In this document: piece by piece, positions 4,095 to 62,090 of the stretch
How positions within the stretch are numbered: the stretch's first letter is position 1
Layout: each line of letters opens with the position of its first letter
Source of the DNA: a virus
Virus record (IMG/VR): IMGVR_UViG_3300031999_000009
Location: 19,274-83,273 of that record
DNA: 64,000 nt
Direction: 5' to 3' (one strand)
Notes under the pieces: generated by a model
Database searches by the model: none
What the model was told of the DNA's origin: nothing
The model's input: only the letters and a program-made list of their open reading frames with translations
Position numbers and translations under genes: made by a program

Positions 4095-4700
4095 GTGACC
4101 TTCGTCTTCCGCAACGGCGTCGTTCTTCCCGTCCCACCAGGCTACGCCGAAGACCCTGACCACCAGGCGCTTGTCGCCAAGCTATCCACCACGAACAGCT
4201 ACGCAGAAGCCGTAGCGGTCCTTGGGGGCGCCCCACTTTCGTCATGGCTCGCGGCCGACCTGCTCACCGGCGCGCCATGGGCTCGCCGCTTCTTGAACAC
4301 CACGGCACGGCTGTGGTCACAGGACAGGAAACTGGCCGAATCGGGCATCCGCGCCATGATGCGCGTGCTGTCGGGGCAAGAATCGAAGGCTGGGCGGCAC
4401 CGAACACTGCCGTTGACGCCGGCTGAACAGACTCTGGCGACCTCGGCCGTGGCCGCCTGGCGCGTATTGGTGGATGCCGCCTGGTCTACAGACCGCCCCG
4501 GACTGGCCCAGGCGCTCGCCAGGCACGCGAACGCCAGGTTCAAGCTCTCCAAGGCCCACGGGAAGGCGCTCGTGGCCCTGACGAGGCGCAGGCGGCTCAG
4601 ACGCGCCGACGTGGTCGTGGCCTTGGCCTCGTGGGAAACGGGGATACCCGCCAGGCGCCTTGGACCTCCACAAGCCGTCGCCGACCTGATCTACGGCTGA
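4095..4700 (+). CDS. Hypothetical protein with helical basic C-terminus
   Basis: 201 residues starting at GTG with no ribosome site, preceded by a -10-like hexamer, so it may be translated from a leaderless message. The N-terminal third (GVVLPVPPGY...) looks like a small domain. From about residue 60 the protein is mostly helical and very rich in Ala, Leu and Arg, ending in a basic helix (LTRRRRLRR). It could bind nucleic acid. It lies between the tail block and the chaperone genes. Family unknown. Confidence 0.6.
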   Translation: MTFVFRNGVVLPVPPGYAEDPDHQALVAKLSTTNSYAEAVAVLGGAPLSSWLAADLLTGAPWARRFLNTTARLWSQDRKLAESGIRAMMRVLSGQESKAGRHRTLPLTPAEQTLATSAVAAWRVLVDAAWSTDRPGLAQALARHANARFKLSKAHGKALVALTRRRRLRRADVVVALASWETGIPARRLGPPQAVADLIYG

Positions 4701-4715
4701 TACCGCCGGCGGTAT
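4700..4715. repeat. Perfect 16-bp palindrome ATACCGCCGGCGGTAT, copy 1
   Basis: First of four identical copies in the window. Its first A is the last base of the upstream TGA. A self-complementary, loop-free site of this length is typical of an operator for a dimeric DNA-binding protein. A 20-base core including flanks (TGA before, GG after) is shared with the copy at 54375. Confidence 0.85.
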
Positions 4716-33325: not shown

Positions 33326-33341
33326 ATACCGCCGGCGGTAT
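33326..33341. repeat. Perfect 16-bp palindrome ATACCGCCGGCGGTAT, copy 2
   Basis: Lies four bases after the ssb stop. Its centre is 21 bp from the centre of the parS-like palindrome that follows, two DNA turns, so two dimers could sit on the same face. Confidence 0.85.
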
Positions 33342-33347
33342 GAACAC

Positions 33348-33361
33348 GTTCCACGTGGAAC
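33348..33361. promoter_or_regulatory. parS-like palindrome GTTCCACGTGGAAC
   Basis: Perfect 14-bp palindrome closely matching the core of bacterial parS. With one flanking base on each side it reads CGTTCCACGTGGAACA, differing at the outermost base. It lies between the 16-bp palindrome and the next gene. Confidence 0.65.
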
Positions 33362-34373: not shown

Positions 34374-34409
34374 TGTCTTATGTTGATGGAGACGATGATG
34401 GAGACAAAC

Positions 34410-35192
34410 ATGACCACTTGGGAATTCCCGAGCACCACGACAAGCGAGATTCACACCGTCACCCTGGTCGACCCGCGCACGAAGTTTCTGACGTGCACCT
34501 GCACTGGTTTCAAGTATCGCCGCGACTGCTGGCACACCAAGGCGGTCGCCGAAAAGATTTCCCCGGCGGTGGCACCGGCTGACAACAAATTTCTTCGAGC
34601 CGCGCTCGACTATCACAAGATGGGCTACCACGTGATTCCGGTCGAGCCGAACGGCAAGCGGCCACTCGTGCAGTGGAAAGATTTCATGACCGTCAAGCCG
34701 ACGCTGGGCCAGATCAAGACCTGGTGGATGCGCACCCCGAACGCCAACGTGGCGATTGTGCTCGGCCAGAACCGGTTTGCGGTGGACCTGGACGGCGGCG
34801 CCGAAGCCGAAAAATTATTGGCGGACGCGGGCATCGAGCTTCCCGCCGACGCGCCCCGCAGCAAGACAGGCGGCGGCAATCACGTGTTCCTGTCCGCGCC
34901 CACGCCGCAACCTGACCGAATCGGTCTGCTGAAGGCGGCCGAGCCGCTGGCCGGCGCACTGCCCACGCCGAAGGGCAAGCTGCGCCACGCGCAAATCGAC
35001 ATCCGCGGCCTCGGAATAATTATCGCGGCCCCGTCCGTGCACCCGAGCGGTGCCGTCTACACGTGGCTGTCGCCGCTGACGGCCACGCCGCCGATGGCGT
35101 CGGACGCGCTGCTGGAGCTCATCGCCTACGTGCCTCCGCCGCCACCGAAGAAGCCGCGGGCGCCGCGCAAGGCAAAGGTCGTGGTGTCATGA
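34410..35192 (+). CDS. SWIM zinc finger fused to a bifunctional primase-polymerase domain
   Basis: 260 residues. Residues 1-50 form a SWIM finger (L-T-C-T-C-x(8)-C-W-H). From about residue 58 there is an AEP-type primase-polymerase domain: G-Y-H-V-I-P-V-x-P-N-G-K-R-P, V-D-L-D-G-G (metal-binding D-x-D), K-T-G-G-G-N-H, and I-D-I-R-G-x-G-I-I-I-A-A-P-S-x-H-P-S-G. It makes primers or fills gaps. I prefer the ATG behind GGAGACAAAC because MTTWEF then aligns with the start of the SWIM-ligase; the alternative is the leaderless ATG at 34380. It is a short, single-domain form. Its neighbour is a ligase and Ku lies 8 kb away, suggesting end joining. Confidence 0.85.
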   Translation: MTTWEFPSTTTSEIHTVTLVDPRTKFLTCTCTGFKYRRDCWHTKAVAEKISPAVAPADNKFLRAALDYHKMGYHVIPVEPNGKRPLVQWKDFMTVKPTLGQIKTWWMRTPNANVAIVLGQNRFAVDLDGGAEAEKLLADAGIELPADAPRSKTGGGNHVFLSAPTPQPDRIGLLKAAEPLAGALPTPKGKLRHAQIDIRGLGIIIAAPSVHPSGAVYTWLSPLTATPPMASDALLELIAYVPPPPPKKPRAPRKAKVVVS

Positions 35193-35269: not shown

Positions 35270-35490
35270 TCGCGACCTACCCGTCGTCGACTGAGCCTGG
35301 CGTCACACACACCGTCACGGTGAAGACGCGCCCCGGCACCAGGCAGGTGGCGTTGAAGTGCACGTGTAAAGGGTTCACGCGCGCGGCGCGCTGGCACTCC
35401 TGCTGGCATGTCCGCGAGGTGGCTCAACGAAATAATTATTTGACCGTGGTCGGCGGCGAGCTGTTCGGCTACACACCGGAGGCCAAATGA
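35263..35490 (+). CDS. Stand-alone SWIM zinc-finger protein
   Basis: 75 residues. Beta strand pair (H-T-V-T-V-K-T-R-P), then C-x-C-x(11)-C-x-H (L-K-C-T-C-K-G-F ... S-C-W-H-V-R-E-V). The same T-H-T-V-T-x-x lead-in occurs in the SWIM parts of the primase-polymerase and ligase, so the three are paralogues. Coupled to the ligase frame by ATGA. It may be a DNA- or protein-binding adaptor of the end-joining set. Confidence 0.7.
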   Translation: MVVATYPSSTEPGVTHTVTVKTRPGTRQVALKCTCKGFTRAARWHSCWHVREVAQRNNYLTVVGGELFGYTPEAK

Positions 35491-36635
35491 CCTGGGAGTT
35501 TGCGTCGAAGTCTAGCAGTGCTGTTCACACCGTGACGCTCCACCCCTCTGGCGAACTCGTGTGCACGTGCAGCGGCTGGCGTTTCAAGAAGCCTGGCAAG
35601 CCACGTGAGTGCACGCACATGACGGGGCTCATCAAAAAGAATTCGTGGTCACGGGACGTGAAGGGCGACCTCGTGATCATCAAAGAATCCGTCGAAAATA
35701 GTCCGAATTCGGTCGTGCCTCTCTTGACTCCGCCTGTCGATGATAGTATCATTGTTCTTGTAGGAGGGACACCAACAATGAACACAACGATGACCACCCC
35801 CACTCAGACGGCCCCGGACGCGCAGCTTGCGGTGGGCATGACCACCCCGGTGAGCGGTGCGGCGTTCAACGAAAAATATGGCGACGGCACCTGGTCGATG
35901 GACGAGAAGCTCGACGGCCACCGGTGCTTGGTCGTGAAGCGCGGCGAGGACATCAAGTGCTGGTCACGCGGCGGCGCCGGTCGTGCCAGCCTCGAAAAGA
36001 AAGTGACCCCAGCCATCCTGTCCGCCATCGCGCAGATGCCCGACGGCATCTACGACGGCGAGCTGATGATTCCCGGCGGCAACTCATGGAACGTGGTGGA
36101 CCTGGCCAGGCAGCACGAGCTGGTGGTCATCCTGTTCGACGTGCAGGAGATTCTGGGCCAGAACGTGTGCAAGGAACCACAGTCCATGCGGCGCGACCTG
36201 CTCGCGCAGGCGGTGGCGCACGTGAAGACGGACGCGGTGCGGTTGGTGGCCAGCTTCACGCCGGAGTGGGCGGTCATCGAAAAGATTTGGGCCGAGGGTG
36301 GCGAGGGCGTCATCGTCAAAAAGAATTCTGCCCCCTACCGCCCCGGCTACCGGTCGGATGCGTGGGTCAAGGTGAAGCAGCTGATGTCGGTGGTCGGCGT
36401 CATTACCGGGTTCAAGGCTGGCTCGTTCGGTCCCCACTCAGTAACCTGCGTGACCCTGGACAGCGGCGTCAAAACCCAGGTCAAGACACTGGACACCGTG
36501 ACGCTGGCGGCGATCGAAAAAAATCCCGAATCTTTCCTCGGCCACCGACTGGTGATTCAGTGCCAGCAGGTGGTGGCGTCGAGCGGCTGCCCGCGTCATC
36601 CGATGTGGGACCACATGGCGGGAGACACGGAATGA
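35487..36635 (+). CDS. ATP-dependent DNA ligase with N-terminal SWIM finger
   Basis: 382 residues as the full frame. Residues 1-47 are a SWIM finger (V-C-T-C-x(13)-C-T-H). The adenylation domain follows: motif I E-K-L-D-G-H-R with Lys141 as the AMP-accepting residue, motif III Y-D-G-E-L, motif IV E-G-V-I-V-K, motif V W-V-K-V-K, then a small OB domain. An internal promoter (35724-35752) and an ATG at 35778 behind TAGGAGGGACACC would give a 285-residue ligase without the finger, close in size to minimal viral ligases. So both a fused and a free form may be made. Seals DNA nicks; a role with Ku is inferred. Confidence 0.9.
   Translation: MTWEFASKSSSAVHTVTLHPSGELVCTCSGWRFKKPGKPRECTHMTGLIKKNSWSRDVKGDLVIIKESVENSPNSVVPLLTPPVDDSIIVLVGGTPTMNTTMTTPTQTAPDAQLAVGMTTPVSGAAFNEKYGDGTWSMDEKLDGHRCLVVKRGEDIKCWSRGGAGRASLEKKVTPAILSAIAQMPDGIYDGELMIPGGNSWNVVDLARQHELVVILFDVQEILGQNVCKEPQSMRRDLLAQAVAHVKTDAVRLVASFTPEWAVIEKIWAEGGEGVIVKKNSAPYRPGYRSDAWVKVKQLMSVVGVITGFKAGSFGPHSVTCVTLDSGVKTQVKTLDTVTLAAIEKNPESFLGHRLVIQCQQVVASSGCPRHPMWDHMAGDTE
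35724..35752 (+). promoter_or_regulatory. Early promoter-operator, copy d, inside the SWIM-ligase frame
   Basis: TTGACT, 17 bp, TATCAT. The operator is extended here to a 13-bp palindrome ATGATAGTATCAT. The upstream GAAAATAGTCCGAATTC tract is also coding. Start site predicted near 35759, just before the ribosome site of the short ligase form. Confidence 0.88.
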
Positions 36636-43270: not shown

Positions 43271-43295
43271 CTCGCTGCCGGATTGATAGTATCAT
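43267..43295 (+). promoter_or_regulatory. Early promoter-operator, copy f (Ku)
   Basis: TTGACT, 17 bp, TATCAT, TGATAGTATCA over the -10; GGCAAAGAATTAGCC upstream, inside the HNH gene. Leader of about 55 bases before the Ku start. Confidence 0.88.
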
Positions 43296-43357
43296 CGTTT
43301 GGTAAGGTGATGACGACCACTTCGGCAACCACGGTGACTACGAAGGAGACGACGACA

Positions 43358-44158
43358 ATGGCCATGCGCTCAATCCTCAACTTGAACATCAGCCTCGGAA
43401 TGTTCGGCTTCCCGGTCAAGGTTTACAAGGCAGTGAACGACCCCGCGGAGGGCATCTCGTTCCGCCAGGTGCACGCAGCGTGCGGCACCCCGATCAACCA
43501 GGTGAAGCGCTGCTCCTGCTGCAACGTCGACGTGACGCAGGCGGAGCTGGTCAAGGGCTACGAGCAGCCCGGTGGCCCGATGCTGATCTTCCAAGAGGAC
43601 GAGATCAAGGCCCTCAAGCCCGAGGCGATGGGCACGGTCAAGGTCGACGGCTACCTCGCCGCTGACGAAATCGACCCCTGTTACCAGGACGGCCCCATCT
43701 ACTACTTGTCACCTGACCGCGGCACCAACAAGAAGGGCGACTGCGACACGTTCACCACCTGGCGCGACGCGCTGGCTGGCCGGTGGGCCATCGGCAAGGT
43801 CGTCATGTATGGCCGCGAGCACGTGGTGGCGATTCGCAGCGTCGACCGCCTCTTGGCGATGCACTTCATTCGGACCCACTCGGAGATTCGCAACGTGTTC
43901 GACGTGCCGGCCTACGACACGGTGCCGGAGACGAGCAAGAGCGAATACGCCGAGCTGATGGGCCAGCTCATTCGCAAGTCCACCATCGCGTTCGACGACG
44001 TGGTGCTGGAGTCTGACGCCTACACGGACTCGGTGAAGGCGCTGATCGAGTCGCGCAAGGCAGGCCAGCCCGCTCCGGCGCAGGCTGAGTTCAAGCCCGC
44101 GTCCACCGGTGGCGACCTGCTCGCGATGCTGAAGGCGTCATTGGCGGCTCAGGCGTGA
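43358..44158 (+). CDS. ku: Ku-like DNA end-binding protein
   Basis: 266 residues, the size of bacterial Ku. Family pattern is clear: an N-terminal strand (RSILNLNISLGMFGFPVKVYKA), S-F-R-Q-V-H, a C-x-x-C pair (C-S-C-C), Q-A-E-L-V-K-G-Y-E, then D-E-I-D-P-C-Y-Q-D-G-P-I-Y-Y-L and W-A-I-G-K-V-V-M-Y-G-R-E-H-V-V-A-I-R. Ku rings load on double-strand ends and recruit a ligase; mycobacteriophages such as Omega and Corndog carry Ku for genome circularisation. Start chosen at the ATG behind GAAGGAGACGACGACA. The same promoter family drives the phage ligase and primase-polymerase. Confidence 0.92.
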   Translation: MAMRSILNLNISLGMFGFPVKVYKAVNDPAEGISFRQVHAACGTPINQVKRCSCCNVDVTQAELVKGYEQPGGPMLIFQEDEIKALKPEAMGTVKVDGYLAADEIDPCYQDGPIYYLSPDRGTNKKGDCDTFTTWRDALAGRWAIGKVVMYGREHVVAIRSVDRLLAMHFIRTHSEIRNVFDVPAYDTVPETSKSEYAELMGQLIRKSTIAFDDVVLESDAYTDSVKALIESRKAGQPAPAQAEFKPASTGGDLLAMLKASLAAQA

Positions 44159-53799: not shown

Positions 53800-54375
53800 G
53801 TGCCTCTGGAGCGCCTCGCGGTTCGCTATCGGTCGACGTCTGGCACGCCGCTGATCTCGGTCACGCAGGTGCTGACGTTGGCCGGTCGCATCGACACGAC
53901 TTGGTTCACGGAAGAGGCGGCCAAGCGCGGGCAGCTGGTGCACGACTTGACCGAGGTGTTCGACCGGGGCGACCCGTTGGATATCCCGCCAGGGCTCGAA
54001 GGCTACATGGACGCCTACGCCAGTTTCGTGGCGATCGTGCGGCCGGTCTACTCCGCCAGCGAAATCGAGGTGTGGAACGGAGCCTTGGGGCTTGGCGGAC
54101 GGATCGACAGGATCTGCGCAGAGCTGTTCGGCGCGCCTGGCGTGCTCGACTTCAAGACCGGCGACCCCATGCCATGGCATGGGCAGCAGTTGGCCGCCTA
54201 CAACGTCCTGCGGCCCACAGGCGCACGGTGGGCGTGCTATTTGAGCAAGACAGGCCAGTATCGGCTGAGGGCCTACAACGACCCAATTGACCACCGTCGG
54301 TTCATGTATGATCTGGCCCGCACGCGGGGCACGGTGGAGGCGGATGGGAACCATTGGGTAAGGATCGCCGCGTGA
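53800..54375 (+). CDS. PD-(D/E)XK nuclease (Cas4/RecB/exonuclease-like)
   Basis: 191 residues from GTG. Core: G-L-G-G-R-I-D-R-I (acidic Asp), then V-L-D-F-K-T-G (Asp and Lys of the D-x-K pair, about residues 117-119) and Q-L-A-A-Y-N-V-L. H-D-L-T near residue 48 gives the upstream histidine of RecB-like members. Probably a 5'-3' exonuclease or end processor working with the annealing protein. Its stop gives the first A of palindrome copy 3. Confidence 0.85.
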   Translation: MPLERLAVRYRSTSGTPLISVTQVLTLAGRIDTTWFTEEAAKRGQLVHDLTEVFDRGDPLDIPPGLEGYMDAYASFVAIVRPVYSASEIEVWNGALGLGGRIDRICAELFGAPGVLDFKTGDPMPWHGQQLAAYNVLRPTGARWACYLSKTGQYRLRAYNDPIDHRRFMYDLARTRGTVEADGNHWVRIAA

Positions 54376-54390
54376 TACCGCCGGCGGTAT
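54375..54390. repeat. Perfect 16-bp palindrome ATACCGCCGGCGGTAT, copy 3
   Basis: Overlaps the upstream TGA as copy 1 does. Its last two bases plus the next G form an ATG in frame with the following gene. Confidence 0.85.
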
Positions 54391-55267: not shown

Positions 55268-55971
55268 AGCGGCACCTGATTCCTGGCCATCGCGCTCGCG
55301 TGGCGGAACTACTTGCCCTCAATCCAGAGCGCACAAACTGGTCTATTGGGCACGAGGTTGGTGTCTCGGCAAGCTTCGTGGCTGACAGCCGGACCCAGTT
55401 AGGCATGAAGACCACTGACGAGCTTCGCGTCGAGCACGTCGAGCTGCTTCTGAGCCAAGGCAAGGCGACGTATGAAATTGTTAAGTTAGCGAAGACCAGT
55501 CCAGGCCGCGTCGTGGAGATCCGGAAGATGCGTGCGGATCGTGGATTGGTCGACCCCACCGCCGCCTCGCTGAAGCTGAAGGCCATGGCGACGATGGCAG
55601 CCGATGGTTATAACTCCGAGCAGATCTCCGAGGCGCTAGGTGTGGAGCCTGAACGCGTGCGTCTCAGATGCCGTCAAGAAGGGATCGATGTTCCTGGCGA
55701 CATTCACGCTGGCCAAAAGCGCAAGGTCAACGGTAATCGCGTCATGCACCACATCGTGGAGGACGCTGACGACTTGACGTCAGACGTCAAACTGATCGAC
55801 TTCACGACGCTCGACAAAAACGAGGTTCCTGGCTGGCTAAAGATGCTACGAGGATCTCGTCGGAAACTGACGCAGCTGATCGATCGGTTGCAAATTTATG
55901 GAGGCGGCAACGGCAATGACCAAGACCAAGACGCAGGCGCTCCCGAATCATCCAGAGGTGGCGCAGCCTAG
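55264..55971 (+). CDS. Protein with three helix-turn-helix units
   Basis: 235 residues from GTG overlapping the previous stop. Three successive HTH-like units: near residue 25 (N-W-S-I-G-H-E-V-G-V-S-A-S-F-V), near residue 70 (T-Y-E-I-V-K-L-A-K-T-S-P-G-R-V) and near residue 115 (S-E-Q-I-S-E-A-L-G-V-E-P-E-R-V). Tandem HTHs suggest a replication initiator or transcription regulator; a candidate for binding the palindromes. The C-terminal end overlaps the next gene. Confidence 0.7.
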   Translation: MKRHLIPGHRARVAELLALNPERTNWSIGHEVGVSASFVADSRTQLGMKTTDELRVEHVELLLSQGKATYEIVKLAKTSPGRVVEIRKMRADRGLVDPTAASLKLKAMATMAADGYNSEQISEALGVEPERVRLRCRQEGIDVPGDIHAGQKRKVNGNRVMHHIVEDADDLTSDVKLIDFTTLDKNEVPGWLKMLRGSRRKLTQLIDRLQIYGGGNGNDQDQDAGAPESSRGGAA

Positions 55972-56773
55972 ACATACATCGAAGGTCCGCGGCGTCCCGA
56001 TTCACCAAATGCGCGTCCCGCCTGTCCACATTACGCAACGTCCGTTCAGGAAGGCGCACGGCGACAGGCTGGCTGCGAACTTGGATCTCGAGCTCCTTGG
56101 TCTACCAGTGATCAACTACCGTGACGGGATTTACTGGGTCGTAGAAGGACAGCATCGTGTCTACGCACTTCGCCAGCGTGGCTTCGACGGCGACATGCTC
56201 GACTGTCAGGTCTACAACAATTTGTCGGACGAGGAGATGGCGAACCGTTTCCTCGGCGGCGCTGACACCTTGCCATGCAACCCCTACGACAAGTTCTTCA
56301 TTTCCATCACAGGTAAGCACGTGCGCGAGTGCGAGGTGCAGCAATGTGTCGAAGATCTCGGCTTGAAGGTGAGCAAAGGCAAGTCCGAGACGTCCCTGGG
56401 ATGCGTATCAACCCTTTGTCGCATTTACGATCGGTTCGGCTTGTCTGTCCTACGGCATGTGCTGCAGGCGCTGAAGTTGGCCTTCCCAGGCGATAAGAAT
56501 GCGTTCGAGTCCGCATTGGTGGACGGCCTCGCGCTCGTCTACGGTCGCTATAGTTCCAGTGTGCGCGATGACGAAATGTCGGTGCGCCTGATGACGATCC
56601 ATGGTGGCCCACGCGGTCTTCTGCGTCGGGCTGAAAACCAGCGCGAGCGCACTGGCGGTCAGAAGCCTCAGTGTGTGGCGGCCGTCATCGTCGAGGTCTA
56701 CAACAAAGGGGTGGGGTCTAAATCCAAGGTTCGCTTGCCGTCGTGGTGGAAGGAGATCTCGTCGAATGCGTGA
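55916..56773 (+). CDS. ParB-like nuclease-domain protein
   Basis: 285 residues; start at the ATG after GGAGGCGGCAACGGC, with an in-frame ATG 18 bases upstream. V-P-P-V-H-I-T-Q-R-P-F-R-K near residue 30 and W-V-V-E-G-Q-H-R-V-Y-A-L-R near residue 70 are the ParB-fold signature (E-G-x-H-R). The second half is helical. Actinophage relatives are of unknown function; CTP use or nuclease activity is possible. Confidence 0.7.
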   Translation: MTKTKTQALPNHPEVAQPRHTSKVRGVPIHQMRVPPVHITQRPFRKAHGDRLAANLDLELLGLPVINYRDGIYWVVEGQHRVYALRQRGFDGDMLDCQVYNNLSDEEMANRFLGGADTLPCNPYDKFFISITGKHVRECEVQQCVEDLGLKVSKGKSETSLGCVSTLCRIYDRFGLSVLRHVLQALKLAFPGDKNAFESALVDGLALVYGRYSSSVRDDEMSVRLMTIHGGPRGLLRRAENQRERTGGQKPQCVAAVIVEVYNKGVGSKSKVRLPSWWKEISSNA

Positions 56774-58192: not shown

Positions 58193-60358
58193 ATGGGCGT
58201 AGCGCTCGATCGAATCCTCAGCAAGTTGAACGGCGTCAAGCCTATCTCCGGCGGATGGGTGGCTCGCTGTCCTGCTCACGAAGACCACGTGCAAAGCCTC
58301 CAAGTATCCGAGCGTTCGGATCTCAGTGTGGGCTTACATTGCCACGCCGGGTGCGCCAAGGACTCCATCACTGGCGCCATCGGCCTGTCGTTCGGCGATC
58401 TCTTCGAACCCAAGGACGACGACGACAAGCAGATCGTCTCGGTCTTCGATTACCGATCGTTCGACGGAAAATTGCTCTACCAGTCCGTGCGGTTCTATCC
58501 GAAGGAGTTCAGGCAGCGGCAGCCGCAAGGGTCCGACTGGACTTGGAGCATGGCCTCGCTGAAAGGGCAGCATGTGCCCTACCGCTGGCCGGAACTGAAG
58601 GGCCACAACGTCGTCGTCGTCGTTGAAGGCGAGAAGGACGTTGACCGCCTGTGGGCGCTGGGGATCGCCGCAACGACCAATATCGGCGGCGCCAAGAAGT
58701 GGAGCACGAACGAGACGAAGTGTCTCACGCAAGCCGGCGTCAGCCGCATCATCATCCTGCCAGACAACGACGAGGCCGGAGCCGCCCACGCGGTCATCGT
58801 GGCGAAGTCTGTCAAGGCGGCCGGGATTGCGGTGAGCGTCATCGCCCTGCCTGACCTTCCTCCGCATGGTGACGTGAGCGATTGGTTGATGAACGGTGGC
58901 ACCAAGGAAGCGCTTCAAGACCTCTTGGCCGCCAAGCCTTACGTGTTGTCGCCGGGTCACGACCCGTCGCCGTTGCCCGCGTCGGTGATTCCTGACGACG
59001 AGCTCGACCTGACGCAATATCACCTGACAGACCTCGGTGCCGCTGAGACGCTCCGCGATCGGTTCAGCGACCGTCTCCGCTACGACCATCAACGTGAGCA
59101 ATGGTTGATGTGGGACGGACACTTCTGGGCGCCCGACTTGGACGAGGGTGCCTCGCGCGCGGCGAATGAGCACGTGCGCTTGCTGCAGCGTGACGCCTTG
59201 CGCATCCCTGACTACGTGCAGCGCAAGCAGTATCTCGACTTCGCCATGGGCCGTGAGAAGCGGGGCCCGCTTGTGGCGATGATGCAGCAGGCGTCTGCGT
59301 TGAAGCCGTTGGCGATCGTGGGCGACGCCTGGGATGCTGACGGCTGGACGCTCGGGTGTCCCAATGGCATCGTCGACCTTCGCACGGGTGCCTTGCGCGA
59401 TGGCGATCGGAGCGACTTCATCACCCTGCAGACCGGCGCACGCTATGAGCACGCCGATTGCCCGCGCTGGATGCAGTTCCTTGGGGAAATCTTCGACGGC
59501 AACCTGGACCTGATCGACTACATCTGGCGCGCTATCGGCTATTCCCTGACGGCGGACATGCGCGAGCAGTGCTTCTTCGTGATGTTCGGGTCGGGGTCCA
59601 ACGGGAAGAGTATTTTCATCGACGCGCTTGAGCACGTCTTCGGCACCTACGGGCACCGCGCCGACATGCGGATGTTCGCCGGCAATACCGCGGACGCGAG
59701 CAGCTTCCAGAATGCGGACTTCCGTGGCAAGCGGCTCGTGTTCGCCGCCGAGGTTCGCCCTGGCGCCCGCATGAACGAGCACATCCTGAAGCACTTCACG
59801 GGCGGCGAGACGCTCCGGGCCGAATACAAATACGGGCGCTCGTTCACCATCCGACCTGTGGGCAAGATTTGGTTGGGCGTCAACCACCGGCCGAAGGTGG
59901 CGGACGATTCCTTCGGCTTCTGGCGGCGCGTCCGCCTGGTGCCCTTCCTGCGGACCTTCACGGGCTCCTCAGAGGACCGTTCGCTTCGGGAGACGCTGAG
60001 GGCTGAGGCGCCGGGAATTCTATCCTGGGCGGTCCAGGGCGCCCTGGAATGGCAGCTCCGCGGCTTGGTCGCGCCAGCCATCGTTCAGGATGCGACCAAC
60101 GACTACCAGACAGGCGAAGACCCGTTGGCCGACTTCTTCGCCACGCGCACCAACGATGTTGAGGACAGCATCGTTCCGTTCGCCAAACTCTACGCTTCCT
60201 ACCGCGATTGGGCGACCAGTATGGGTATCTCAGACCGCGAGAAGCTGGCGGCCAAGGCATTCGTCAATTCGCTCCAGAGCCGGCCATATGAGCGTATCAA
60301 GCACAATAACGCCAATTGCTACAAGGGTTTAGAGTTAGTTTCGACTAATCTGTTTTAA
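58193..60358 (+). CDS. D5-type primase-helicase
   Basis: 721 residues. Zinc ribbon of the CHC2 type (C26, H29, C50, C54); TOPRIM-like primase segment with V-V-V-V-E-G-E-K-D near residue 140 and P-D-N-D-E-A-G near residue 190; linker; then an SF3 helicase domain of the D5/P4 family with Walker A G-S-G-S-N-G-K-S (about 465-472), K-R-L-V-F-A-A-E-V near 520 and W-L-G-V-N-H-R-P. It primes and unwinds DNA for phage replication. Immediately followed by a UUCG terminator and an AT-rich tract, the expected region of an origin. Confidence 0.92.
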   Translation: MGVALDRILSKLNGVKPISGGWVARCPAHEDHVQSLQVSERSDLSVGLHCHAGCAKDSITGAIGLSFGDLFEPKDDDDKQIVSVFDYRSFDGKLLYQSVRFYPKEFRQRQPQGSDWTWSMASLKGQHVPYRWPELKGHNVVVVVEGEKDVDRLWALGIAATTNIGGAKKWSTNETKCLTQAGVSRIIILPDNDEAGAAHAVIVAKSVKAAGIAVSVIALPDLPPHGDVSDWLMNGGTKEALQDLLAAKPYVLSPGHDPSPLPASVIPDDELDLTQYHLTDLGAAETLRDRFSDRLRYDHQREQWLMWDGHFWAPDLDEGASRAANEHVRLLQRDALRIPDYVQRKQYLDFAMGREKRGPLVAMMQQASALKPLAIVGDAWDADGWTLGCPNGIVDLRTGALRDGDRSDFITLQTGARYEHADCPRWMQFLGEIFDGNLDLIDYIWRAIGYSLTADMREQCFFVMFGSGSNGKSIFIDALEHVFGTYGHRADMRMFAGNTADASSFQNADFRGKRLVFAAEVRPGARMNEHILKHFTGGETLRAEYKYGRSFTIRPVGKIWLGVNHRPKVADDSFGFWRRVRLVPFLRTFTGSSEDRSLRETLRAEAPGILSWAVQGALEWQLRGLVAPAIVQDATNDYQTGEDPLADFFATRTNDVEDSIVPFAKLYASYRDWATSMGISDREKLAAKAFVNSLQSRPYERIKHNNANCYKGLELVSTNLF
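60334..60357 (+). terminator. Intrinsic terminator with UUCG loop
   Basis: GTTAGT-TTCG-ACTAAT hairpin, then CTGTTTTAATT. UUCG loops and a U-rich tail are classic for intrinsic terminators. It overlaps the stop of the primase-helicase and is the most convincing terminator in the window. Confidence 0.65.
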
Positions 60359-60500
60359 TTGCGTTTAACTCACAACAATAGTGACCAATGACGTAACGGC
60401 AGTTTGGCGGAGATTTTCTATACTCTTCTCTCATAGAGACTTTCTAGAAAGAGTAGATATGTTATTATTCTCAGTTCCTGGACTTGGTCCAAGGAGGCCC
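60359..60500. other. AT-rich tract with palindromes, origin candidate
   Basis: About 140 bases much richer in A+T than their surroundings. They contain TACTCTT/AAGAGTA arms, a TCTC-TCATA-GAGA hairpin, the palindrome CTTTCTAGAAAG (60440-60451), a TATACT -10-like hexamer and an AAGGAGG with no start codon after it. No protein gene is supported. Adjacent to the replicative primase-helicase, so it may be a replication origin or a control region. Confidence 0.45.
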
Positions 60501-60516
60501 ATACCGCCGGCGGTAT
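60501..60516. repeat. Perfect 16-bp palindrome ATACCGCCGGCGGTAT, copy 4
   Basis: Lies between the AT-rich tract and the GIY-YIG-like gene, 15 bases before its start. Same sequence as copies 1-3. Confidence 0.85.
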
Positions 60517-60531
60517 CGACTGGAGGTGCCG

Positions 60532-60936
60532 ATGTCTGCGCACGATTGGGAGCGGGAAGAGTGGAAATGCGAGGCCGTCCGATGCCGTCACATCGCGGTG
60601 CCGGACGTCGGGGAATCAGAACGCGTGCTGGTCGCGGACGTGTTGGCTAGGAAGGCGTGGTTTCCGGTGGCCGGCCTGTTCATCCTTCGGGATGGAGATG
60701 CCGTGCAGTATGTGGGACTGGCGTCAAACCCCTTGCGGCTTCGGCTGACGGTGGCGATCTCGTCTGGCAAGACGTGGACGAAGGCCGATTACCGCACATG
60801 GACCGTGACGTTGCAGCGCGCCCCTTCAGATTATCCAGACGACCTCGCGCTAGAACGGCGGATCATCGCCGAGCACGCGCCACCGTTCAATGTTCTTGGG
60901 CGTCCACGGCGCGAAATGCGCGCCATCGTGCAGTGA
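60532..60936 (+). CDS. GIY-YIG-like nuclease fold protein
   Basis: 134 residues behind TGGAGGTGCCG. The order matches a GIY-YIG domain: G-L-F-I-L-R-D-G-D near residue 50, V-Q-Y-V-G-L-A-S-N-P-L-R-L-R (Y-V-G and the conserved R), then E-R-R-I-I-A-E-H-A-P-P-F-N-V-L with the metal-binding Glu and closing P-x-x-N. The N-terminus carries two cysteines. A possible DNA nuclease; the first GIY tyrosine is replaced by Leu-Phe, so activity is uncertain. Confidence 0.65.
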   Translation: MSAHDWEREEWKCEAVRCRHIAVPDVGESERVLVADVLARKAWFPVAGLFILRDGDAVQYVGLASNPLRLRLTVAISSGKTWTKADYRTWTVTLQRAPSDYPDDLALERRIIAEHAPPFNVLGRPRREMRAIVQ

Positions 60937-60990: not shown

Positions 60991-61215
60991 ATGGCAACGC
61001 TCAAGGGCACGATCAAGTCACTGAAGAAGGCCGAGGGTTTCGGGTTTATTACCCACACTGCCACCGGCATCGACCATTTCTTCCACCGCACAGGACTCTT
61101 CAACCACCCGAACCCGCCGATTCCCTTCGCGGATTTGCGTGAAGAGCTGCCCGTGGAATTCGAGGCTGAGGAAGGCCCGAAAGGACTCCGCGCCGTCGAG
61201 GTTCGACCACTTTAA
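60991..61215 (+). CDS. Cold-shock domain protein
   Basis: 74 residues behind GAGGAGGCGGCGACG. G-T-I-K-S-L-K-K-A-E-G-F-G-F-I (RNP-1-like) and D-H-F-F-H-R-T-G-L-F (RNP-2-like) are the two nucleic-acid-binding motifs of the OB-fold cold-shock family; length is standard. Binds single-stranded DNA or RNA, perhaps phage transcripts. A TAAGAT lies upstream. Confidence 0.9.
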   Translation: MATLKGTIKSLKKAEGFGFITHTATGIDHFFHRTGLFNHPNPPIPFADLREELPVEFEAEEGPKGLRAVEVRPL

Positions 61216-61463: not shown

Positions 61464-61642
61464 ATCCGCTTCCGCCCATGCCGACCCCTGCCGATTACGA
61501 GGCATGCGTGCTCGCCAACGCCGACAAGGAAAATCCTCACGCCTGGTGCGCGTGGGTGCAGGCGTCTCGCTGGATCGGCCTCGCCATGAAACTCTCAGAC
61601 GGTCCCCCACCGGAGCCTGCGAATGATCTTCATCGGGGTTGA
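61460..61642 (+). CDS. Small hypothetical protein
   Basis: 60 residues from GTG overlapping the previous stop. Pro-rich N-terminus, a helix with W-C-A-W-V-Q-A-S-R-W. Overlaps the resolvase gene by 20 bases. Confidence 0.45.
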   Translation: MNPLPPMPTPADYEACVLANADKENPHAWCAWVQASRWIGLAMKLSDGPPPEPANDLHRG

Positions 61643-62090
61643 CGTGGGCGCGGCCGGCGGTATCGCGTTGATTGACGCGACGGGATCAATGCTGCGCGCG
61701 GTGCACATGCCGGAGACGGACGTCGACATCCTGTCCGTGTTGGAACACGCCCGCGGGCTTGGATGGCATCATGGCGACCCGGAGGCGTCAGGCTGCCGCG
61801 CTGTGCTGGAGAAGGTGCACGCCTCGCCGCAAATGGGCGTGGTGTCGGCGTTCAGCTTCGGCGGCGCCTATCGGTCGGTGCGCATGGCGCTGGCCGCGAA
61901 GGAAATCCCATTCGACGAGGTGTCTCCGATGAAGTGGCAGCGTCGGATGGAGTGCCTATCCGGCGGCGACAAGAACGTGACGAAGGCCCGCGCGCAACAA
62001 CTCTTCCCCGGCGTGAAGGTGACGCACGCCATCGCCGATGCGTTGTTGCTGGCGGAGTTCTGTCGGCGCACCCAAATGGATCTCTCGTGA
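61623..62090 (+). CDS. RuvC-like Holliday junction resolvase
   Basis: 155 residues. I-G-V-D-V-G-A-A-G-G-I-A with catalytic Asp7, V-L-E-K-V-H-A-S-P-Q-M-G near residue 63 (Glu), K-W-Q-R-R-M near residue 104 and H-A-I-A-D-A-L-L-L-A-E-F with the final Asp near residue 139. This RNase-H fold with D-E-D carboxylates cuts four-way junctions during recombination or packaging. Confidence 0.9.
   Translation: MIFIGVDVGAAGGIALIDATGSMLRAVHMPETDVDILSVLEHARGLGWHHGDPEASGCRAVLEKVHASPQMGVVSAFSFGGAYRSVRMALAAKEIPFDEVSPMKWQRRMECLSGGDKNVTKARAQQLFPGVKVTHAIADALLLAEFCRRTQMDLS

What the first reader, a model, noticed from the sequence alone, without database searches (positions are those of the whole stretch)
60334..60516. 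AT-rich control region after the replicative primase-helicase
A UUCG terminator, AT-rich DNA with several inverted repeats including CTTTCTAGAAAG, a TATACT hexamer, an AAGGAGG with no start codon and a copy of the 16-bp palindrome are packed into 180 bases. This is the most origin-like place in the window.
Basis: partly seen in the sequence, partly recalled or inferred. Interest (0 to 1): 0.55.

Follow-up and report, generated by a model that had tools for sequence, protein, structure and literature searches.

The report
Likely phage origin beside its primase
A short AT-rich stretch right after the gene for a phage's DNA-copying initiator protein is very probably the place where that phage starts copying its genome, a layout already known from several other mobile elements.

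Summary
The stretch is real, and its origin-like reading gains comparative support. It holds the AT-richest 150 bp of the 64-kb window (65% against 53% for the next). It directly follows a TOPRIM + D5/P4-family primase-helicase (TIGR01613, E 6e-76) whose last 81 residues are predicted to fold like the phage P4 origin-binding domain (1ka8, Z 9.5). The six closest relatives found (L058/L059 counted once) keep an AT-rich noncoding spacer there, also where the next gene is missing or different. Across the wider family, 10 of 32 post-primase segments carry far inverted repeats against 0 of 159 (mostly coding) controls. The layout matches SaPI/PICI, SCCmec Cch2 and pRN1 origins. Against it: no GC-skew switch, no significant iterons in the window's own spacer, no alignment with L003's spacer, no copy-number data. 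The UUCG 'terminator' is coding and folds no better than shuffles. AAGGAGG and the 16-bp palindrome are not in the conserved core. Verdict: new member of a known kind.

The parts
58193..60358 (+). P4/D5-family primase-helicase: TOPRIM (aa 142-224), D5_N (284-434), DUF5906 (464-579), Pox_D5 (643-696); presumed initiator
   Evidence: Pfam; TIGR01613 over cut-off; phrog_6088 E 5e-146
60113..60355 (+). codons for aa 641-721: predicted winged-helix domain like the phage P4 origin-binding domain
   Evidence: block means of pLDDT 57-83, elements H-E-H-H-E-E; 1ka8 Z 9.5, rmsd 2.3, 77 aligned, 22% identity
60330..60352 (+).
60359..60500 (.). noncoding spacer; with the last codons of the primase it forms the AT-richest 150 bp of the record; candidate replication origin
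60389..60393 (+). TGACG, the only copy in the spacer of the 5-mer most enriched in post-primase spacers of the family; possible initiator half-site
   Evidence: 23 against 5.7 expected in 21 spacers; 1 in the window
60409..60453 (+). conserved core, similar to L062 (41 identical positions) and, as 60414-60475, to L058/L059
60410..60420 (+). direct repeat copy 1, GAGATTTTCTA
60436..60446 (+). direct repeat copy 2, GAGACTTTCTA
60421..60455 (+). dyad TACTCTT (60421-60427) / AAGAGTA (60449-60455); 60395-60470 folds as ssDNA better than 198 of 200 shuffles, but the dyad alone is not significant (p 0.30)
60440..60451 (+). 12-bp palindrome CTTTCTAGAAAG, inside the conserved core
60477..60494 (+). imperfect hairpin CCTGGACTTGGTCCAAGG overlapping AAGGAGG; outside the core aligned with relatives
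60501..60516 (.). one of 4 exact copies of a 16-bp palindrome; probably a separate protein-binding site, not part of the conserved core
60532..60936 (+). next gene: GIY-YIG-type protein (45% identical to the L059 protein that matches Pfam GIY-YIG), with its own GGAGG at 60522-60526
60991..61215 (+). cold-shock-domain protein
61623..62090 (+). Holliday junction resolvase (phrog_1770)

Best explanation
The spacer 60359-60500, centred on the core 60409-60455, is the phage's replication origin (replicator). The P4-type primase-helicase made just upstream binds it through its C-terminal winged helix, assembles as a ring-shaped helicase of the D5/SF3 kind, and melts the AT-rich, hairpin-forming core. 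The exposed strands are then primed by its TOPRIM domain and extended by a polymerase that was not identified. Shown here: position, AT extreme, sequence conservation of the core in two relatives, a predicted origin-binding fold, and repeats or stem-loops at this position in part of the family. Inferred: binding, melting, priming and actual initiation.
For: AT-richest and least stable 150 bp of the window, above anything in the rest of the record. In L003, L058/L059, L063, L012 and L013 the 150 bp at the primase stop are the AT-richest of the locus; in L062 0.09% of windows are higher. The spacer persists in L013, which has no GIY-YIG gene, and in L062, where another gene follows (by reading). 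Aligned to the whole window, both strands, the L062 and L058 spacers give 60409-60453 (58, next best 23) and 60414-60475 (35, next best 20) as best hits (p 0.003 each against 300 shuffles). A core DNA pattern scanned over the viral contigs returned one record, that of L062 (the tool may leave out the window's own record). Far inverted repeats in 10 of 32 post-primase segments against 0 of 159 controls. ssDNA folding mean z -2.54 (20 selected segments) against -0.44 (79 controls), p 2e-4. P4 family membership and P4 origin-binding fold of the C-terminus. Published precedents, seen as passages: origin directly 3' of the initiator gene in PICIs/SaPIs (PMC6092414), putative origin at the same place for SCCmec Cch2 (PMC7581432), essential stem-loop there in pRN1 (PMC4234260).
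Against: No GC-skew switch. The window's own spacer has no significant iterons or far inverted repeats, and its fold is only moderately better than shuffles (z -1.76, 3 of 100; -2.54, 2 of 200, for 60395-60470). Core conservation at sequence level reaches only L062 and L058/L059; L003, with a 72%-identical primase, does not align there (p 0.083; rank 12 of 256 segments), nor do L012 and L063. A shared central motif (TTTTCTATA and the like) is not above a null (p 0.50, 0.07 and 0.15 for 7-, 8- and 9-mers). RNAalifold finds no consensus structure in 8 spacers. 22 of 32 segments have no significant far inverted repeat, and some family members have no spacer at all (Streptomyces phage Samy, Rhizobium phage RR1-A). 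The controls are mostly coding DNA, not matched noncoding DNA. No functional data.
Confidence: 0.72

Rival explanations
1. It is a promoter/operator region that drives the genes after the primase (GIY-YIG, cold-shock, resolvase), with TATACT as the -10 box.
For: AT-rich DNA in front of a gene, a TATACT hexamer, the next gene with its own GGAGG, and a palindrome of operator type 15 bp before the start codon. The promoter scan gives one weak match in the spacer, on the - strand (60491-60464).
Against: No sigma-70-type -35/-10 pair with the TATACT on the + strand (upstream hexamers); promoters of other types are not covered by the scan. TATACT is kept in L062 but not in L058. The spacer stays in L013 without the GIY-YIG gene and in L062 with another gene. 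Promoters do not explain iterons and long stem-loops at the same place in relatives. A promoter may coexist with an origin.
Confidence: 0.15
2. It is an RNA element: the 3' end of the primase mRNA or an early small RNA, acting through hairpins (terminator, processing site, or an RNA that primes replication).
For: TTCG hairpin followed by TTTT at the stop codon; several small hairpins.
Against: Not among the sites of the terminator scan; hairpin no better than shuffles and within coding sequence; RNA fold of 60410-60530 unremarkable (z -0.80); no Rfam match up to E 1; in 7 of 32 family segments there are significant direct repeats, as expected for protein-binding DNA sites.
Confidence: 0.07
3. 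It is an attachment or recombination site, or simply decayed noncoding DNA left by a lost gene.
For: Spacer length and most of its sequence vary between relatives.
Against: No match to tyrosine integrase (PF00589) or serine recombinase (PF00239) in the record at E 0.001. Decayed DNA would not be the AT extreme in relative after relative nor keep a sequence-similar core.
Confidence: 0.06

Closest known systems
SaPI/PICI origins (pri-rep-ori module)
   Same: Initiator gene directly followed by an AT-rich noncoding origin; several family relatives here (L027, L028, L029, L047, L050, L054) have inverted repeat sets around a centre much as described (PMC6092414, passages).
   Different: The window's own spacer lacks detectable iteron sets; it lies in an 83-kb phage record, not a satellite island.
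SCCmec Cch2 putative origin
   Same: D5-family helicase whose C-terminal domain binds short repeats immediately downstream of its own gene (PMC7581432, passages).
   Different: AAGTG iterons there; none recognised here; no biochemistry here.
pRN1 (orf904) origin and the phage BIP-1 stem-loop
   Same: Candidate origin is a stem-loop 3' of an SF3 primase-helicase gene; structure conserved although sequence is not (PMC4234260). L063, L027, L028, L029 and L054 show such stem-loops of roughly 80-110 nt.
   Different: pRN1 uses an archaeo-eukaryotic primase; here the primase is TOPRIM. The window's hairpins are small.
Phage P4 alpha protein and its origin
   Same: TOPRIM + helicase of the P4 family + C-terminal origin-binding winged helix.
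   Different: The layout of the P4 origin was not examined here; the pRN1 paper describes it as repeat-based.
Streptococcus thermophilus phage Sfi21 noncoding origin (302 bp)
   Same: Short noncoding origin in the replication module of a phage (cited in PMC6356513, passages; its place next to the primase is recalled).
   Different: Sfi21 itself was not fetched or compared.

Membership tests
P4-family phage/plasmid primase (TIGR01613) as the initiator | match to the primase C-terminal family model above its cut-off | tested here: met
   255 bits against cut-off 108.7, E 6e-76
P4-family phage/plasmid primase (TIGR01613) as the initiator | C-terminal origin-binding winged helix | tested here: met
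   fold only: aa 641-721 on 1ka8, Z 9.5, rmsd 2.3, 77 aligned, from a model that is poor as a whole but has block pLDDT 57-83 in this domain; a prediction, binding not tested
PICI/SaPI-type origin | region immediately 3' of the initiator gene | tested here: met
   position only: spacer starts at the stop codon, 60359
PICI/SaPI-type origin | AT-rich region (possible melting site) | tested here: met
   AT maximum and least stable 150 bp of the window; melting itself not tested
PICI/SaPI-type origin | two sets of iterons flanking the AT-rich region | tested here: not met
   window p 0.94 (inverted) and 0.16 (direct); significant in relatives such as L028, L029, L047, L050, L054
pRN1-type stem-loop origin | about 100-nt stem-loop 3' of the initiator gene | tested here: inconclusive
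   window z -1.76 (140 nt), core region z -2.54; small nested dyads, not one long stem; long stem-loops in L063, L027, L028, L029, L054
Replication origin in general | autonomous replication or copy-number peak | not testable with these tools
   no reads, no experiments
Replication origin in general | GC-skew switch | tested here: not met
   0.042 before, 0.045 after; a weak test in a phage whose genes seem to run one way

The most novel reading that the evidence does not exclude
This phage lineage uses an iteron-poor origin: the initiator recognises a compact, pyrimidine-rich core of about 45-65 bp with two GA(A/C)TTTCTA-like repeats about 26 bp apart, which took the place of the flanking iteron sets still present in relatives. 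More broadly, 'origin directly 3' of the P4/D5-type primase-helicase' would be a common rule across phages of many hosts, including elements in Acidobacteria MAGs, so that origins could be predicted in hundreds of phage genomes.
Probability: 0.35. Interest if true: 0.55.

Novelty: new member of a known kind. Interest (0 to 1): 0.42.

Why it matters
Replication origins are rarely annotated in phages known only from metagenomes (general knowledge, not searched here). A conserved core beside a P4-type initiator with a predicted origin-binding domain gives a short, testable target. The same position carries iterons or long stem-loops in relatives from mycobacterial, lactobacillar, Acidithiobacillus and Acidobacteria-associated elements, where origins could be proposed from position alone; 738 phage records hold a homologue of the helicase part.

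Tried and rejected
GC skew: no switch. Terminator and sigma-70 promoter scans: no terminator and no + strand promoter at the site, one weak - strand promoter-like match. Rfam: none up to E 1. Shared central motif: not above a null. Consensus structure of eight relatives' spacers: none, on a poor alignment. End repeats of the record: none by exact match of 16 bases or more. Tyrosine integrase, serine recombinase and family-A polymerase: no match at E 0.001 in the record; other polymerase families were not sought. The GIY-YIG protein finds no phage record by tblastn and no Pfam family itself; the L059 protein does match GIY-YIG and is 45% identical to it. The 16-bp palindrome in viral contigs: 8 stretches with one site each, taken as chance from their contexts; kinship was not tested. 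The full-length structure model is poor (mean pLDDT 43); only its C-terminal domain is used. The solved 'DNA primase' 7ola (E 3e-13) is recalled to be SaPI5 Rep; the listing did not confirm it.

What went into the counts. One search used 32 loci (33 stops less L013, a near copy of L012), with control segments at five offsets, mostly coding DNA. Loci without a comparable spacer by eye (L030, L031, L032, L034, L036, L038, L039, L046, L053) are in it and count as misses. Not in it: L033 (ran off its contig), L037 and L042 (no spacer by eye), L018, the N-terminal-only matches L024-L026, L040, L041, L045, the repeats of the same loci L015 and L020-L023, and L058-L064, which came later. The 20 loci were chosen as those with a spacer, so that comparison is selected. 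L058 and L059 are identical over the stretch compared and count as one. In one search, 3 of the 23 TGACG include the stop codon's own TGA and 7 come from AcaML1.

Full report
What is there. The window is bases 19274-83273 of an 83,273-bp virus record. The finding lies between a 721-aa primase-helicase (58193-60358) and a gene of 134 codons (60532-60936). The outstanding property is AT content: 65.3% in the best 150 bp against 53.3% for the next region, mean 37.7%, sd 3.9%, and the lowest calculated duplex stability. The rest of the record (L002) reaches 53.3% at most. The 16-bp palindrome has four exact copies in the window and none, within three mismatches, in L002. The other listed items are weak: the TTCG hairpin is coding, folds no better than shuffles and is not among the sites of the terminator scan; a 12-bp palindrome is of a kind expected about 16 times in the window and seen 21 times in all. 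The promoter scan gives one weak - strand match within the spacer and none with the TATACT.

The neighbour. The upstream protein has TOPRIM, D5_N, DUF5906 and Pox_D5 matches and exceeds the cut-off of the P4-family primase model. AlphaFold gave a poor model of the whole (mean pLDDT 43), but residues 641-720 have block means of 57-83 and form a winged helix. Aligned to solved structures, residues 641-721 match the phage P4 origin-binding domain (1ka8, Z 9.5, 77 aligned, rmsd 2.3) and the RFX DNA-binding domain (Z 9.9); residues 124-256 match DnaG-type primases. The tool warns that middling Z values are common; 1ka8 is notable because it belongs to the family that sequence alone suggests.

Relatives. 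Searches with the primase gave L003 (72% identity), L012 and L013 (51%), L014 and L016-L018 (27-36%) in viral contigs, L019 in a MAG titled Acidobacteria (43%), and with the helicase core L058/L059 (83%), L062 (65%), L063 (55%) and L064 (43%). In L003, L058/L059, L063, L012 and L013 the stretch at the primase stop is the AT-richest 150 bp of the locus, and in L062 0.09% of windows exceed it; in L014, L016 and L064 it is not. L013 has no GIY-YIG gene (its next gene is the cold-shock one) yet keeps the spacer; in L062 the next ORF, 185 aa, is a different protein by reading. So the spacer goes with the primase, not with the gene after it.

A conserved core. Aligned against the whole window, both strands, the L062 spacer has its best match at 60409-60453 (score 58, next 23) and the L058 spacer at 60414-60475 (35, next 20); against shuffles p is 0.003 in both (the smallest value possible with 300 shuffles). 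The L062 match has 41 identical positions. The spacers of L003, L012, L063, L019, L027, L028 and L029 do not stand out in this test. A pattern for the core scanned over the viral contigs returned one record, that of L062 (the tool may leave out the window's own record).

The wider family. I took 200 nt after the stop codon in 32 loci (33 minus L013) and control segments, mostly coding, from the same loci. Inverted repeats with arms at least 35 nt apart, at p 0.02 or less against dinucleotide shuffles, occur in 10 of 32 post-primase segments and 0 of 159 controls; direct repeats in 7 of 32 and 4 of 159. Examples are GGGGACAT repeats in Mycobacterium phage Taquito, TGTGACGGATG in Lactobacillus phage CL2 and TCTGACGGG in Acidithiobacillus phage AcaML1. 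In 20 loci chosen because they have a spacer, 140 nt fold as ssDNA with mean z -2.54 against -0.44 in 79 controls (p 2e-4); L063 forms an 83-nt stem-loop (z -8.1). TGACG is the most enriched 5-mer (23 against 5.7), though 7 of the 23 come from AcaML1 and 3 include the stop codon. The window itself is not significant in the repeat test, has one TGACG, and folds only moderately better than shuffles. Several family members have no spacer.

Literature. Seen as passages: PICI origins lie immediately 3' of the initiator gene and have two iteron sets around an AT-rich region (PMC6092414); SCCmec Cch2, a D5-family helicase, binds through its C-terminal domain repeats directly downstream of its gene, a putative origin (PMC7581432); the Sfi21 noncoding origin is cited in PMC6356513. 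For pRN1 I saw passages and part 1 of section 18: a stem-loop 3' of orf904 is essential, its structure is conserved although its sequence is not, and a like structure follows the replication gene of phage BIP-1; its authors state that they have no direct proof of origin function (PMC4234260). Cluster O mycobacteriophages carry more than 30 copies of a 17-bp dyad repeat of unknown function, plus Ku-like and ParB-like genes (PMC4351075, passages). My searches of the paper library (listings) were for precedents; they do not show that this spacer or core is unpublished.

Conclusion. The most likely reading is a replication origin bound by the adjacent P4-type initiator (0.72). It would work like, and sits like, the SaPI/PICI, Cch2 and pRN1 origins, but the window's copy fails the iteron criterion of the PICI kind, so I do not file it as a PICI-type origin. 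It is a new member of the known kind 'origin directly 3' of a D5/P4-type initiator gene'. The negative skew result, the lack of sequence similarity to L003 at this place, and the absence of functional data keep the confidence below certainty.

Noticed in passing
window 4700-4715, 33326-33341, 54375-54390, 60501-60516: Four exact copies of a 16-bp palindrome, each at or after a gene end and 15-94 bp before the next start; probably sites of a dimeric DNA-binding protein (compare the 17-bp dyad repeats of Cluster O mycobacteriophages).
   Followed up: partly
L013 1457 and 8476, L012 7575; record G002 (122 kb): The relative has its own dispersed 16-bp palindrome TTCACGGTACCGTGAA: 9 sites with up to 2 mismatches, 5 exact.
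   Followed up: partly
window 33348-33361; L013 8515-8528; L012 7621-7632: GTTCCACGTGGAAC (12 bp of it in L012), which I recall as resembling bacterial parS sites, beside the dispersed palindrome in each phage; the phage also encodes a DUF6551 protein (55898-56773) that looks ParB-like by eye.
   Followed up: no
window 34380-35192, 35487-36635, 43283-44158: A Prim-Pol protein with a SWIM motif, an ATP-dependent ligase (best NCBIfam match to NHEJ ligases, below cut-off) and a bacterial-type Ku above cut-off: perhaps an NHEJ-like set in one phage.
   Followed up: partly
L019, L027, L028, L029, L035, L043, L044: P4-type primase/helicase homologues in 26 of 396 genomes of the phylum of a MAG titled Acidobacteria; of these seven loci, four (L027, L028, L029, L044) have significant far inverted repeats after the gene. 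Possibly satellites or prophages.
   Followed up: partly
L047 (Taquito), L050 (CL2), L054 (AcaML1), L056 (vB_Lga_AB1): Clear repeat arrays after the primase gene in named phages; the annotations shown for these stretches list only CDS, no origin.
   Followed up: partly
L017 6969-7024: Direct repeats built on GAGGATCTGC after a distant P4-type helicase gene, direct-repeat score 19.
   Followed up: no
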